From Anaerolineae bacterium (GTDB lineage Bacteria > Chloroflexota > Anaerolineae > JAAYZQ01), in contig JAFGOG010000290.1 in the NCBI GenBank assembly GCA_016926595.1, positions 1-6,656 of the forward strand: a DNA stretch of 6,656 nucleotides, read 5' to 3'. Of this stretch, positions 2,416 through 6,656 are shown piece by piece. The notes beneath the pieces were generated by a model. It had not been told where the DNA came from, made no database searches, and was given only the letters and a program-made list of their open reading frames with translations. Position 1 is the stretch's first letter. Each line of letters opens with the position of its first letter. Both the position numbers and the translations under genes were made by a program.

Positions 2416-2424
2416 CCTGTTCAA

Positions 2425-2462
2425 AGATAAGAAAAGCAGGAACCCGTGCGGATTCCTGCTTT
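2425..2462 (-). terminator. Intrinsic terminator after comEA
   Basis: Perfect 10-bp inverted repeat (AAAGCAGGAA at 2433-2442 with TTCCTGCTTT at 2453-2462, 10-nt loop). On the minus strand it is followed by a T-rich tail (TTTTCTTATCTTTG counting the end of the stem). It lies about 80 nt beyond the comEA stop and just before the kinase promoter, so it separates the two units. Confidence 0.75.
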
Positions 2463-2500
2463 CCTTCTCACAAGGAGGAGAAAGGAGTATCTGCATTATA
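2463..2500 (-). other. comEA 3' untranslated hairpin with anti-Shine-Dalgarno loop; possible small RNA 5' part
   Basis: Within the comEA downstream region the minus strand has a perfect TATAAT (2500-2495) but no good -35 box. Just downstream a 7-bp hairpin (arms 2484-2478 and 2469-2463, one G-U pair) exposes the 8-nt loop CUCCUUGU, which is complementary to ribosome-binding sites. The terminator follows directly. It may be only the 3' end of the comEA mRNA, or a short RNA of about 60 nt released or transcribed separately. Confidence 0.25.
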
Positions 2501-2544: not shown

Positions 2545-3135
2545 CTAATAAGTCGTAATTTCGTCCCGGATCTTTTCCAGGATGCCCGAGCCGATACCGG
2601 TTACATTCAGCAGATCTTCGATCCGAGCAAAGGGCCCATGCGCTTGTCGATAGTCGAGAATGCGCTGCGCCAGCTCTGGCCCAATGCCGGGCAGCGTCTC
2701 GAGCTCGGCCAGGTCCGCGGTGTTGACGTTGACCTTGGCCGGCGTCAGGGATTGTGCGGACGGCAGCCGGACAGGGCTCTGCTCGCCAGCGCGGGGAATA
2801 TGGACCTGCTCGCCATCGGCGACCGGGTGCGCCAGATTAATGCTGTCCAGGTCAGCTTCGGCGGCGGCGCCGCCAGCGGCCAAAAGCGCATCTTTGACAA
2901 TGCTGCCGGGCGGAAGCGTATAGACGTCAGGGCGCTGCACTGCCCCGCTGACGTATACACGCAGCGGGCCAGGGGTAGGCGTGGGCTCGGCCCAGGTAGG
3001 AGCGGGAGAAACAAAAGGGGTCACGACCAGGGGCACAGGCTCAGACCGGCGTCCCTCGACCAAGGCCAGGCCGAGCATCGCCGCCACAACGCACACGACA
3101 AAGAGCACTGCTCGATAGCGCTCAAGCCACTCCAT
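2545..3135 (-). CDS. comEA: ComEA-type competence DNA-binding protein
   Basis: Protein of 196 residues, close to the usual size of ComEA, the envelope DNA receptor that binds double-stranded DNA during natural transformation and passes it to the ComEC channel. A single membrane anchor (about residues 9-26) is followed by a Pro/Thr-rich spacer (33-57, PTPTPGP), an SLBB-type domain (58-115; LRVYVSGAVQRPDVYTLPPG) and a C-terminal pair of helix-hairpin-helix motifs (135-196) with the hallmarks VNVNTA, LPGIGPELAQRI and VTGIG. The HhH pair is the DNA-binding part; most of the protein should lie outside the membrane. The ATG at 3135 lies only 9 nt after the stop of the upstream TPR gene. Its nearest purine-rich site (GGGGAGGA) sits about 13 nt away inside that gene's last codons, so translation is probably coupled. 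No comEC or pilus genes are in the window. Related SLBB-HhH proteins without a proven competence role exist, so uptake function is inferred. Confidence 0.92.
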   Translation of the reverse strand: MEWLERYRAVLFVVCVVAAMLGLALVEGRRSEPVPLVVTPFVSPAPTWAEPTPTPGPLRVYVSGAVQRPDVYTLPPGSIVKDALLAAGGAAAEADLDSINLAHPVADGEQVHIPRAGEQSPVRLPSAQSLTPAKVNVNTADLAELETLPGIGPELAQRILDYRQAHGPFARIEDLLNVTGIGSGILEKIRDEITTY

Positions 3136-3144
3136 TGGCCGTTT

Positions 3145-4272
3145 TCAGTCCTCCCCACACATCTCCAGTCCCTGCTGGGCTGGCAGCGCTTCGGGCTCGA
3201 TCTCGAGAGCCTTTTCCAGGTAAGGGCGGCCCTCGTCACAGCGGTCCAAAAAGGCGTAGGCCAGGCCGAGCAGGTAGTAATACTCAACCTGGGTCGCTCC
3301 CAATTCCAGCGCCTTGTGAAACGCCGGGATGGCATCTTCCCAATTGCGCAGGTCGTAATAGGCCCGTCCCAGGTGGCCGTAGGCCCGGGCATAACTGGGA
3401 TCGAGCTCGATGGCCTTTTTCAGCTCGACCACGGCCCGTTGATAATCGCCCTTACCGTGATAAGCCCAGCCCAGTTGATCGCGAGCATGGGCGCTGTCCG
3501 GATCGATCTGGATCGCTTTCTCGTAAGCGGCCAGGGCATCTGTGTGGCGGTTATAGCTTGTGTGGATACGGCCCAGGTCGATAAACGGCTGCGCCAGCCG
3601 GGGGTCGAGCATCGCGGCCCGTTGGTATTCGGCCACTGCGTCGCGATAGCGGCGCAGCTTTTCGAGGGCATAGCCCAGGTCGCGGTGGGCGAACACACTG
3701 CTGTTGTCCATGCTGACAGCCAGTTGAGCGGTGTCCAGCGCCTGCCTTGTCTGGCCCAGATCGGCGTACACCTCGGCCAGGAAGGCGTGAGCTTGGGCAC
3801 TGCCCGGATCGAGCTCGGTGGCGCGCAGGCACGCGTTCAGCGCCTCCTGGAGCTTGGCCTGGTCGCCGCCTGAATCCCAGTCGAGGGCCATGCACAGCAC
3901 GGCCAGCGCCTGCGGATCGTCGGGCGCAATTCCGACTGCCTGGCGGGCCTTTTCCACGGCCTCCTCCGTCTGCTGGCGCAGGGTCAAGAGAAGCGCCCAT
4001 TGGGCAAAAGGGGCTGGATCAGCCGGATCGAGGGCTGCGGCCTGGCTGTACTTGTCGATAGCTTGGTCCAGCTTGCCAGCCATGTACAGCTTGTCGGCTT
4101 CGGCCATAACCTGGGCCGCGGTGAGCGTGGGAGTGGGCGTCGGGCCGACCTGGATCGGCTTGATCAGATCGCGCTGCCAGATCAGGACATAGGCCCCCGC
4201 CGCTACGAGCGCCAGCAGGATCAGCACTCGGATGGGCGCAGAACGTCTTTTCTTGGGTGGTCGAATATACAT
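3145..4272 (-). CDS. Membrane-anchored TPR-repeat protein, first gene of the comEA operon
   Basis: Protein of 375 residues. A basic N-terminus (KKRR, 7-10) and one hydrophobic helix (about 14-32) make a typical inside-to-outside anchor. A short Thr-Pro spacer (44-50) leads into about nine consecutive tetratricopeptide repeats from residue 51 to near the end, with clear units such as AEYQRAAMLDP, AAYEKAIQIDPDSA and VELKKAIELDPSYA. The array is therefore expected on the outer face of the cytoplasmic membrane, where it would bind other proteins. No catalytic motif is seen. The start at 4272 has GGGAG 6 nt upstream and lies about 15 nt from the predicted transcription start. Its stop is 9 nt before comEA, so the two are co-transcribed and may act together; a scaffold for the uptake or pilus machinery is a guess. 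TPR proteins are very numerous in this phylum, so the name cannot be made more specific. Confidence 0.92.
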   Translation of the reverse strand: MYIRPPKKRRSAPIRVLILLALVAAGAYVLIWQRDLIKPIQVGPTPTPTLTAAQVMAEADKLYMAGKLDQAIDKYSQAAALDPADPAPFAQWALLLTLRQQTEEAVEKARQAVGIAPDDPQALAVLCMALDWDSGGDQAKLQEALNACLRATELDPGSAQAHAFLAEVYADLGQTRQALDTAQLAVSMDNSSVFAHRDLGYALEKLRRYRDAVAEYQRAAMLDPRLAQPFIDLGRIHTSYNRHTDALAAYEKAIQIDPDSAHARDQLGWAYHGKGDYQRAVVELKKAIELDPSYARAYGHLGRAYYDLRNWEDAIPAFHKALELGATQVEYYYLLGLAYAFLDRCDEGRPYLEKALEIEPEALPAQQGLEMCGED

Positions 4273-4293
4273 TCCCTGCTCCCGTACCGGACT

Positions 4294-4322
4294 ATTATAG
4301 CATGGTCAGGCCTAGCTGACAA
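4294..4322 (-). promoter_or_regulatory. Promoter of the TPR-comEA operon
   Basis: On the minus strand TTGTCA (4322-4317, five of six matches) is followed after 17 bp by a perfect TATAAT (4299-4294), preceded by TGC as an extended -10. The start would be near 4287, leaving a leader of about 15 nt. The TT of the -35 box is also the end of the T-run of the upstream terminator. Confidence 0.85.
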
Positions 4323-4403
4323 AAAAAAGACTCTCTCACCCTGTCTGCCTCGAGTTGTGAGCAACGAGTGCGTCCGACGATAGGCCGGTAGAGTGAGAGA
4401 GCC
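4321..4403 (-). terminator. Intrinsic terminator with long branched stem
   Basis: Arms 4403-4393 and 4339-4329 pair over 11 bp (one G-U) on the minus strand, and the stem is followed at once by eight T residues (4328-4321). The 53-nt loop is itself structured: a few further pairs extend the stem (TCT with AGA, CC with GG) and a small hairpin GTTG-CTCA-CAAC lies at the tip region. No protein gene on the minus strand ends here, so it either ends a noncoding RNA or shields the comEA operon from transcripts coming from the rpoB side. Confidence 0.7.
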
Positions 4404-4440
4404 CTGGCGGGGAGCGAGCATTACGGGCAGCGACGTAGGC

Positions 4441-4535
4441 CGATGAAGCGACAATGTTCGACTACGAAGCTACGGCGTAGGTCGATGAAGCGACGGTGTG
4501 CGACTGGTAATGTTCGACGGCGACGATGAAGCGAC
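4441..4535. repeat. Three imperfect tandem units of about 42 bp
   Basis: The 12-mer CGATGAAGCGAC occurs exactly at 4441, 4483 and 4524, so the spacing is 42 and 41 bp. A second 10-mer AATGTTCGAC occurs at 4453 and 4509, and GTAGGC/GTAGGT precedes the first two units. The sequence between the cores has diverged, so this is an old or constrained repeat, not a recent duplication. It lies in noncoding DNA. Confidence 0.7.
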
Positions 4536-4548
4536 GAAACCCCGCTAC

Positions 4549-4585
4549 TGACAGACTGCTCCAGCCAGGCTGGGCGTCTCTGTCA
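4549..4585. other. Strong stem-loop at the predicted 5' end of the noncoding RNA
   Basis: An outer stem (TGACAG at 4549-4554 with CTGTCA at 4580-4585, extended by AC/GT) encloses an inner perfect hairpin CCAGC-CAG-GCTGG (4561-4573). No T-run follows on either strand, so it is not a terminator. As RNA on the minus strand it would begin within one base of the predicted transcription start, a position that often protects an RNA from 5' decay. Confidence 0.55.
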
Positions 4586-4592
4586 CAGTGAA

Positions 4593-4621
4593 ATGGTACC
4601 ATATCTGCGCTCTGTTGTAAA
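4593..4621 (-). promoter_or_regulatory. Candidate promoter of the noncoding RNA
   Basis: On the minus strand TTTACA (4621-4616, five of six matches) is followed after 17 bp by TACCAT (4598-4593, four of six), preceded by TGG as an extended -10. The -10 lies inside the palindrome ATGGTACCAT (4593-4602), which could also be an operator. It faces away from the rpoB promoter about 50 bp to the right. Confidence 0.4.
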
Positions 4622-4671
4622 TGGGAATTTAGTACCAGGCGGTGGAGGCATGTCCAACCCGGCATCTGAAT

Positions 4672-4700
4672 TTGACAATGCAGGCAATGATACATATAAT
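4672..4700 (+). promoter_or_regulatory. Perfect-consensus promoter of rpoB
   Basis: TTGACA (4672-4677), a 17-bp spacer and TATAAT (4695-4700) match the vegetative sigma-70/sigma-A consensus at all twelve positions. The start should lie near 4705-4709. A promoter this strong directly upstream suggests rpoB is transcribed here independently of the ribosomal protein genes that precede it in many bacteria. Confidence 0.9.
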
Positions 4701-4706
4701 ATGCGT

Positions 4707-4929
4707 TTGCGGCTGGGTCCAGAACTTGTGTGCACATATTTGCCTGTGGGTTGTGTTGTGACGTGTACTGTGCTGTCGTGTTGCCCTCACGAAGGTACAA
4801 GCTCTCCTCATCCCTGGACACAGGCTCGACTGCGAAGGATCTTGACAGGACAGCGGGCCGCTCGTAATAGGCCATAGCAGCGACTTGTCGCTCCATGTGT
4901 GTAATTGCCGATCAAGGGAGTGAAACGGA
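4707..4929 (+). promoter_or_regulatory. Long structured 5' leader of rpoB mRNA
   Basis: About 220 nt between the predicted start and the ATG. Visible pairings: GCCTGTG (4742-4748) with CACAGGC (4819-4825), 7 bp; inside it a hairpin with TGTAC/GTACA (4764-4768, 4795-4799) and TCGTG/CACGA (4776-4780, 4788-4792); and AGCGAC-TT-GTCGCT (4879-4892) shortly before the ribosome site. GTCCAG (4717-4722) can pair with CTGGAC (4814-4819), which crosses the first pairing, so the two are alternatives or a pseudoknot. Positions 4741-4783 are almost purely G and T. No T-run terminator and no leader peptide with a ribosome site is seen. The leader may control rpoB output after transcription starts, but no known leader family is recognised. 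Confidence 0.5.
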
Positions 4930-6656
4930 ATGCCCAATAGGACGCAACGGAAATCTTATGCGCGTATCCCGGATGTACTGCCTCTGCCAGACCTGATCGA
5001 GATTCAGCTCGATTCGTATCTATGGTTCCAGCACGACGGTCTGCGCGAGCTATTCGACGAGATCTCGCCCATCCAGAGCTTTAACGGGAACTTTGAGCTC
5101 CATTTTCCCGGCTTGAACGAAGAGCTAAACCAGAGGTTCGGCCTGGATTATCGCTTTGAAGAGCCCAAGTATGACCAGCAAGAATGCCTCGACCGGGACA
5201 TGACCTATGCTGCGCCTCTCTATGTCCGTGTCGCGTTGTGGAACAAGGAAAGCGACGAGTGGACCACACAGGACGTGTTCATGGGCGATTTTCCATTGAT
5301 GACAGATCACGGCACATTTATCATCAATGGGGCCGAGCGGGTGGTGGTCAGCCAGCTCATCCGCTCGCCTGGGGTCTATTTCACCGTGGAGGAAGACCGG
5401 ATCACCGGGCGAGGGCTGTGCATGGCCAAGCTCATTCCCAACCGGGGCGCGTGGCTCGAGTTCGAGACTGCCAAGAGGGACGTGCTATCGGTCAAGGTAG
5501 ACCGCAAACGCAAGCTGCCAGTTACCATTCTGCTGCGGGCCGCGGGCTTGGGCTCTGACGAGCAACTGCTCGATCTGTTCAAACTGTCGGACAGCATGCC
5601 CGATCATCCCTATATCCAGGCCACCATCGAGCGGGATCCGACCAAATCGACCGAAGAGGCGTTGATCGAGTTCTATAAAAGGCTGCGCCCTGGCGATCCG
5701 GCGACGCTGGACAACGCCACCAACTTTGTGCAGATGCTGCTGTTTACACCCCGTCGCTACGACTTGGGCCGGGTGGGACGCTACAAGCTGAACAAGCGCC
5801 TGAACCTGGACATTCCGCTGGATAAGCGCATCCTGACCGATCAGGACCTGGTCCGGGTCGTGGAGCGGATAATCCAGGTGAACAACGGGATCGAGGGGCC
5901 TGACGACATCGACCACCTGGGCAACCGCCGGATCAAGACGATGGGCGAGCTGATCCAGAACCAGCTCCGCATCGGCTTGCTGCGCATGGAGCGTGTGGTA
6001 CGCGAGCGGATGAGCATCCGCGAGCCTGAGCAGATGACGCCCATCTCACTTATCAACGTCCGGCCGGTGGTGGCGGCGACGCGCGAGTTCTTTGGCGGCA
6101 GCCAGCTCTCGCAATTCATGCAGCAGACCAACCCGCTGGACGAGCTGACCCACAAACGGCGCCTGAGCGCCCTGGGACCTGGCGGCCTGCGGCGCGAACG
6201 GGCTGGGTTCGACGTGCGCGACGTGCACCACTCGCACTATGGCCGCATCTGCCCCGTCGAAACGCCCGAAGGCCCGAACATCGGCTTGATCGGCTCTTTG
6301 GGCAGCTATGGCCGGATCAACGAGTATGGGTTTATCGAAACGCCATACCGGAAGGTGATCCTCAGCGTCCCCAACCGGCTGGACCGCACGCTGGGCAAGA
6401 CCGTTTACGAGCAGATCGTCGATCCGGCTACGGGTGAAGTGATTGCCACGCGCGACCAAAAGATCGACGAGGCGATGGCCGAACGCCTGGCCGGCCTTTT
6501 CGATCAACTGCCCGAGATCAAGATCCGGCCCATGGCCACCAACGAGATTGAATATCTCTCGGCCGACGAAGAGGACAAGTTCACCATCGCCCAGGCTAAC
6601 GCCGAGCTGGACGAAGAAGGGCAGTTTGTCCACGACCGGGTGTCGGTGCGGTGCGC
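4930..6656 (+). CDS. rpoB: RNA polymerase beta subunit, N-terminal 575 residues (cut by right edge)
   Basis: Beta subunit of the core RNA polymerase, half of the catalytic cleft. The ATG at 4930 has AAGGGAG (4914-4920) 9 nt upstream. The N-terminal protrusion and lobe segments are in order ([56 protein letters not shown]), then the fork/rifampicin region (about 391-424, GGSQLSQFM... [13 protein letters not shown]) and [14 protein letters not shown] (441-454). The key His falls at residue 408, much earlier than in Bacillus or E. coli, so the lobe is compact as in Thermus. Two oddities: Gln398 and Asp404 replace the usual Asp and Ser/Ala (E. coli positions 516 and 522), and residues 477-539 form an insert of about 50 residues relative to Bacillus. 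Usually rpoC follows; it would lie outside the window. No rplJ-rplL genes precede it. Confidence 0.98.

What the first reader, a model, noticed from the sequence alone, without database searches (positions are those of the whole stretch)
4321..4586. Candidate undescribed noncoding RNA divergent from rpoB
Seen directly: a 17-bp-spaced promoter candidate with extended -10, a 5' hairpin starting at the predicted first base, repeated motifs, and an 11-bp-stem/U8 intrinsic terminator, all on the minus strand in a stretch without a protein gene. The strong terminator has no upstream gene to serve, which is the main clue. Inferred: an independent RNA of about 265 nt. I recognise no known family.
Basis: partly seen in the sequence, partly recalled or inferred. 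Interest (0 to 1): 0.75.

Follow-up and report, generated by a model that had tools for sequence, protein, structure and literature searches.

The report
New standalone small RNA in Chloroflexota
Beside the rpoB gene of an Anaerolineae-type bacterium lies what looks like a real, independently transcribed non-coding RNA gene of about 265 bases that two related species also carry and that matches no catalogued RNA family; what it does is still unknown.

Summary
Minus strand 4621-4321 carries a -35/-10 pair (17-base spacer, TG before the -10), a 5' hairpin at the predicted start, a repeat domain and a 15-pair terminal hairpin running into U8. Rfam 15 has no match there at E up to 10. The two nearest relatives found (RpoB 86% and 83%) show no copy at rpoB, but each whole genome has one homolog elsewhere: G002 (blastn E 1.1e-7) and G001 (window-only covariance model, E 5.0e-5). 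In G001 it precedes the same TPR-comEA-kinase block as in the window; in G002 it lies near the gene that flanks it on the other side in G001. Window/G002 similarity spans promoter to U-tract and ends there. 6S and tmRNA lie elsewhere in both relatives. The TPR gene has its own promoter after the terminator, against a cis leader. Best reading: a trans-acting sRNA gene of an uncatalogued family, found in these three species only (samples of 396 class and 400 phylum genomes). Covariation is suggestive, not significant. Function is inferred from CRUYG boxes, three at identical alignment columns in all three RNAs: multi-site antisense pairing or protein titration.

The parts
4593..4621 (-). promoter of the RNA: TTTACA, 17 nt, TACCAT, TG before the -10
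   Evidence: counterparts TTTACA-17-TACAAT in G002 and TGGACA-17-TATAAA in G001 (read by eye)
4321..4586 (-). non-coding RNA gene, about 265 nt, predicted start 4586, end in the U-tract at 4321
   Evidence: homologs in G002 and G001; similarity to G002 runs from just before the -35 box to the U-tract
4549..4585 (-). P1, 5' hairpin: 4585-4579 pairs with 4555-4549
   Evidence: 7 of 7 pairs in window and G002, one with both sides changed; G001 folds a hairpin of other sequence at the same place
4540..4545 (-). P2 left strand GCGGGG
4407..4412 (-). P2 right strand CCCCGC, closing the central domain
   Evidence: stems of 10 and 8 pairs in G002 and G001 (G-U allowed); combined shuffle p 0.004, window alone p 0.40
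4413..4539 (-). central repeat domain with CRUYG boxes; CAUYG boxes at 4528-4524, 4487-4483, 4456-4452 and 4445-4441
   Evidence: 11 CRUYG in the 282-nt aligned stretch against 2.2 in dinucleotide shuffles, 9 of the 11 before P4; box columns 73, 116 and 158 of A11 shared by all three species
4328..4404 (-). P4, terminal hairpin: 4404-4390 pairs with 4328-4342
   Evidence: 14 of 14 pairs counted are standard in all three sequences, two with both sides changed; z -5.2
4321..4328 (-). U-tract of the intrinsic terminator
   Evidence: U5 in G002, weaker UUCUUUAU in G001
4294..4322 (-). separate promoter of the downstream TPR gene (TTGTCA, 17 nt, TATAAT, TG before the -10)
   Evidence: 11 of 12; the same TTGTCA-17-TATAAT stands before TPR orthologs in L148 and L150, and TGACCATGCTATAAT is kept in G001 (read by eye)
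3145..4272 (-). TPR protein gene, the conserved neighbour in G001
   Evidence: 62% identical ortholog next to the G001 RNA

Best explanation
A stand-alone small RNA gene of a new, lineage-restricted family. It is transcribed from its own sigma-70-type promoter, starts with a 5' hairpin, has a central domain closed by a helix (P2) and ends in its own intrinsic terminator. It most likely acts in trans through its repeated CRUYG boxes (UUCAUCG and the like), pairing with mRNAs around CRAUGAA-type start regions at several sites; titration of an RNA-binding protein by the same boxes is the close alternative. Shown by computation: a gene conserved in three species with promoter, terminal hairpin and boxes, outside a fixed rpoB or TPR context. 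Inferred: that it is expressed, that it acts in trans, and that the boxes are the working part; no target was tested. The confidence given is for 'real, stand-alone ncRNA gene of an uncatalogued family'; for the antisense mechanism alone it is about 0.35.
For: Homolog in G002, blastn E 1.1e-7; pairwise 65% over 329 columns, from 14 bases before the -35 box to the U-tract. A model of the window sequence alone finds one place in each of G002 (E 1.5e-30) and G001 (E 5.0e-5), the next matches at E above 1. Synteny, independent of the model: TPR1 (258 residues aligned), kinase, comEA and TPR2 at 73, 67, 53 and 62% identity beside the G001 copy; a shared neighbour gene links the G001 and G002 loci. 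Terminal hairpin: 14 of 14 pairs in 3 of 3 sequences. No convincing conserved frame. No relevant Rfam match in any of the three; 6S and tmRNA above cut-off, and RNase P RNA below cut-off, at other places in both genomes. The TPR gene has its own promoter; in G002 the next gene after the RNA is convergent.
Against: No expression data. Three sequences only: the covariation of P4 is reached by 55 of 500 shuffles and the window's P2 alone is not unusual (p 0.40). The G001 copy is a weak match by sequence: 22.4 bits with the window-only model, whose own antisense hairpin scores 20.6; that model places G001's 5' end about 37 nt too far upstream, and the trimmed copy L110 did not pass E 1e-7 or 3e-7. 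Boxes are not predicted to be more unpaired than the rest of the central domain overall (window 0.45 against 0.48, G002 0.38 against 0.45, G001 0.60 against 0.52), and CRUYG excess in G001 is weak (169 of 2000 shuffles reach it). The window repeats could partly be a local duplication. G001's U-tract is poor. No further convincing member in samples of 396 class and 400 phylum genomes.
Confidence: 0.85

Rival explanations
1. CsrB-like decoy: the repeated CRUYG boxes sequester an RNA-binding protein and so control its targets indirectly.
For: Boxes at alignment columns 73, 116 and 158 in all three species and 95 in two (G002, G001), spaced 21-22 or 42-43 nt; excess over dinucleotide shuffles in window and G002 (0 of 2000 each).
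Against: Boxes not predicted to lie in loops; two further shared boxes (columns 147 and 168, window and G002) do not fit the 21-nt register, and the window lacks the box at 95; no protein partner was sought or found; the motif is not the GGA of CsrA-type sites (recalled).
Confidence: 0.3
2. Cis-acting leader or attenuator of the TPR-comEA operon: the hairpin at 4328-4404 ends transcription early unless a signal lets it through.
For: The RNA precedes the TPR gene in the same direction in window and G001; a terminator hairpin lies between.
Against: The TPR gene has its own promoter overlapping the end of the U-tract, also seen before TPR orthologs of L148 and L150, where the RNA model finds nothing; in G002 the RNA is followed by a convergent GNAT-type gene.
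Confidence: 0.1
3. Antisense or spurious transcript of the rpoB promoter region, without function of its own.
For: It lies divergently, about 120 bp from the rpoB promoter in the window.
Against: Conserved in two relatives where it does not lie at rpoB.
Confidence: 0.03
4. A divergent copy of a known housekeeping RNA (6S, tmRNA, RNase P RNA).
For: One copy per genome in the relatives, stand-alone, with its own terminator.
Against: 6S and tmRNA are above cut-off at other places in G001 and G002; RNase P RNA is below its cut-off but found elsewhere (86.3 bits over the whole model in G001, 62.5 bits over model positions 111-207 in G002); no relevant Rfam match; the predicted 5' and 3' ends do not pair with each other. 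SRP RNA was not searched genome-wide.
Confidence: 0.03

Closest known systems
CsrB/RsmZ-type titrating sRNAs (recalled)
   Same: stand-alone intergenic RNA with many copies of a short motif and an intrinsic terminator
   Different: motif is CRUYG, not GGA; boxes not predicted in loops; no known protein partner; no Rfam match
multi-seed antisense sRNAs with repeated C/U-rich seeds, such as Listeria LhrC (recalled)
   Same: repeated C/U-containing boxes, stand-alone gene, 3' terminator hairpin
   Different: boxes would match start-codon contexts rather than Shine-Dalgarno sequences; no targets identified; different phylum
6S RNA (RF00013)
   Same: stand-alone bacterial RNA of similar size class
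   Different: 6S is a long rod whose ends pair (recalled); here the ends fold into separate hairpins, and a 6S above cut-off lies elsewhere in G001 and G002
Chloroflexi-1 (RF01698; table passage of PMC2864571 seen)
   Same: candidate structured RNA from the same phylum
   Different: listed there for Chloroflexus aggregans; the Rfam scan gives no match here

Membership tests
bacterial intergenic stand-alone sRNA (general kind) | own promoter | tested here: met
   by sequence only; -35/-10 with 17-nt spacing in three species (G001 read by eye)
bacterial intergenic stand-alone sRNA (general kind) | own intrinsic terminator | tested here: met
   G001 U-tract weak
bacterial intergenic stand-alone sRNA (general kind) | no conserved open reading frame | tested here: met
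   inside the window RNA only a 13-codon GTG frame (10 codons or more, ATG/GTG/TTG); between species the best peptide match of stop-free stretches is 34% over 38 residues, E 0.001, window against G002
bacterial intergenic stand-alone sRNA (general kind) | expressed as a discrete RNA | not testable with these tools
   no transcriptome data
any Rfam 15 family | match to a covariance model at its cut-off | tested here: not met
   at E up to 10: nothing in the window RNA; in the G002 and G001 copies only eukaryotic families overlap (mir-3160, HOXB13-AS1_2; snoU61), far below their cut-offs
6S RNA | RF00013 score; closed rod with paired ends | tested here: not met
CsrB/RsmZ | repeated GGA in hairpin loops binding CsrA (recalled) | tested here: not met
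   the repeated element is CRUYG and is not preferentially unpaired; CsrA was not searched for
riboswitch/attenuator leader | constant position before one regulated gene, which depends on the leader's promoter | tested here: not met

The most novel reading that the evidence does not exclude
A new class of multi-box decoy RNA in Chloroflexota: CRUYG boxes, several of them in a roughly 21-nt register inside a P2-closed domain, capture an undescribed global RNA-binding regulator, a counterpart of CsrB-CsrA built on a different motif.
Probability: 0.2. Interest if true: 0.65.

Novelty: new member of a known kind. Interest (0 to 1): 0.45.

Why it matters
In the open-licence library no paper holds both 'Anaerolineae' and 'sRNA', and Rfam has no model for this RNA. 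A conserved sRNA gene that keeps its form while its neighbours change, with a regular box pattern, gives a concrete target for asking how small RNAs regulate genes in this little-studied phylum.

Tried and rejected
Copy next to rpoB in relatives: blastn of window 4281-4930 against the 79 RpoB loci gave two hits only (E 0.23 and 0.63), the L056 one at the rpoB promoter; the upstream regions of L056 and L001 were also read by eye, and model R1 finds nothing at rpoB there.

Further members, judged chance. blastn: 6 of 396 class genomes at E up to 0.01; besides G002 these are five matches of 20-36 bases, not inspected. R1: 5 of 396 at E up to 1; besides G002 and G001 three partial matches (E 0.07-0.4). 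R3: 50 of 396 at E up to 1 and 5 of 400 phylum genomes at E up to 0.01; only G001 and G002, which are in the model, match strongly over its whole length. The best of the rest is G452 (L177, genome E 1.3e-5, 25.1 bits), as low an E-value as the one that revealed G001. It covers only the first 80 of 280 model positions, without P4, lies over the start of a 197-codon frame that reads like a secreted protein, and R1 does not see it at E up to 10. Seven weak loci were looked at (L119-L122, L177-L179): L119 is a 22-bp tandem repeat at a contig end; L120, L121, L122, L178 and L179 lie in open frames of 327-585 codons. Of these and L180, R1 matches only L119 (9.3 bits). The remaining weak hits were not inspected. 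In searches of more than 40 genomes only a few candidates per genome are scored, with stricter filters.

TPR-anchored search: 231 of 249 class genomes have a TPR match; the 30 loci returned were searched with R3 and only G001's, which is in the model, has the RNA. One of the 30 (L156) holds only 7 bases upstream of the alignment. G002 has no TPR2 match at E 1e-20, so the gene may be lost or missing from the assembly.

Structure: no common fold of the central domain was established; single-sequence folds differ, and the CUAC/GUAG hairpin holds in window and G002 but not in G001 as aligned. The alignment A11 misplaces P1 and P2 of G001, so only P4 was scored on it.

Full report
What is in the window. 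On the minus strand lie a TPR gene (3-1133, running off the window), a response-regulator/histidine-kinase gene (1189-2397), comEA (2545-3135) and a second TPR gene (3145-4272); on the plus strand rpoB starts at 4930 (gene names are my reading of the translations, no family search was run). Between TPR2 and rpoB lie 657 bases without a convincing gene. The finding's elements are there: promoter 4621-4593, hairpin 4585-4549, repeats, and a hairpin with U8 at 4404-4321. The terminal hairpin is far more stable than shuffles (z -5.2, 0 of 200; G002 z -4.6, 0 of 200; G001, cut a little short, z -3.1, 1 of 200). The whole RNA is only modestly stable (z -2.1, 5 of 200; G002 z -2.6, 3 of 200). The promoter alone (9 of 12) would not stand out.

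Relatives. No genome is held for the window, so relatives were reached through RpoB: 79 loci, the best L056 (86%) and L001 (83%), the next 69%. Their rpoB-upstream regions do not contain the RNA. A blastn search of six relatives' whole genomes gave one strong place, in the genome of L001 (G002), E 1.1e-7; the other matches, in G001-G005, had E of 0.1 or more. A covariance model of these two sequences then found one more full-length match, in the genome of L056 (G001), E 3.0e-5. As a cleaner test a model was built from the window sequence alone: in both whole genomes it ranks these two places first, E 1.5e-30 and 5.0e-5, everything else above E 1. Caution: for G001 this is 22.4 bits, close to the 20.6 bits that the antisense strand of the window's own hairpin scores, and its 5' end is placed too far upstream; so for G001 synteny carries much of the weight. 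Two genomes of this order were available and both carry the RNA.

Context. In G001 the RNA stands directly before the same four-gene block as in the window, at 53-73% protein identity. On its other side is a gene (7550-9742 of L111) whose homolog is also the upstream neighbour of the RNA in G002, there after one small reading frame on the other strand (similarity read by eye from the translations, the glycosidase-like nature guessed). In G002 the next gene is a convergent, GNAT-like one whose 3' end overlaps the RNA's 3' end. The RNA thus appears to be one orthologous gene whose neighbourhood differs on one side in the window lineage and on the other in G002. Window/G002 similarity starts 14 bases before the -35 box and ends at the U-tract, which is what an autonomous gene predicts. 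Window/G001 similarity covers parts of the RNA (E 1.7e-4 and 0.003) and, more strongly, the TPR promoter and gene start (E 3e-18); G002/G001 share one stretch of the central domain (E 6.5e-5).

Not a leader. The TPR gene has its own TTGTCA-17-TATAAT promoter overlapping the end of the U-tract. The same promoter stands before TPR orthologs in L148 and L150, where the RNA model finds nothing.

Structure. P4: 14 of 14 pairs standard in 3 of 3, two with changes on both sides and three with one-sided changes; sliding the partner by one to three columns drops pairing to 36-64%, but 55 of 500 shuffles reach the covariation score, so this is supportive, not proof. P1: 7 pairs in window and G002, one with both sides changed; G001 has a hairpin of other sequence there. 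P2: stems of 6, 10 and 8 pairs in window, G002 and G001 (G-U allowed, in 16-nt flanks that I chose); combined p 0.004, window alone 0.40.

Boxes. CRUYG occurs 11, 8 and 4 times in window, G002 and G001, against 2.2, 1.9 and 1.7 in dinucleotide shuffles (reached in 0, 0 and 169 of 2000); CAUYG 4 times in each (reached in 1, 23 and 29 of 2000). Box starts at alignment columns 73, 116 and 158 are shared by all three; 95 by G002 and G001; 147 and 168 by window and G002. Columns 73, 95, 116 and 158 fit a register of about 21 nt; 147 and 168 do not. Predicted accessibility does not single the boxes out. The motif was chosen after looking at the sequences, so the shuffle counts overstate its significance.

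Known families. Rfam 15 gives nothing relevant in any of the three. 6S and tmRNA are above cut-off at other loci in G001 and G002; RNase P RNA is below its cut-off, 86.3 bits full-length in G001 and 62.5 bits over a part in G002. SRP RNA was not searched. Papers: two, 274 (15 listed), one, none and one papers met the five searches; I saw listings, and two passages of PMC2864571; none listed describes such an RNA by title or abstract start. The library holds open-licence papers only.

Distribution. No further convincing member in samples of 396 class and 400 phylum genomes; the best stray hit, L177, is described under Tried and rejected. Verdict: very probably a real, uncatalogued, lineage-restricted sRNA gene; how it acts is open, with multi-site antisense pairing or protein titration the leading readings.

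Noticed in passing
window 4672-4929: rpoB has a perfect TTGACA-17-TATAAT promoter and a leader of about 220 nt; the same promoter stands about 190-220 nt before rpoB in L056 and L001 (read by eye).
   Followed up: partly
window 2424-2471: Strong hairpin GAAAGCAGGAATCC..GGTTCCTGCTTTTCTT on the minus strand after comEA, probably its terminator; Rfam's mir-1976 match there is far below its cut-off.
   Followed up: no
L119 1487-1629: 22-bp tandem repeat array rich in the same CATCG word at a contig end; judged an unrelated minisatellite.
   Followed up: partly
L148, within 450 bases upstream of the TPR ortholog: Inverted repeat TTGACTTTACCCAC..GTGGGTAAAGTCAA before the TPR promoter; possibly another RNA or a small mobile element.
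   Followed up: no
G002 C288:9134-9307 (L116): A second, weaker 6S-like match (38.5 bits, below cut-off) besides the clear 6S.
   Followed up: no
L080 1683-1755: The 3' end of the GNAT-like gene overlaps the 3' end of the RNA on the opposite strand.
   Followed up: no
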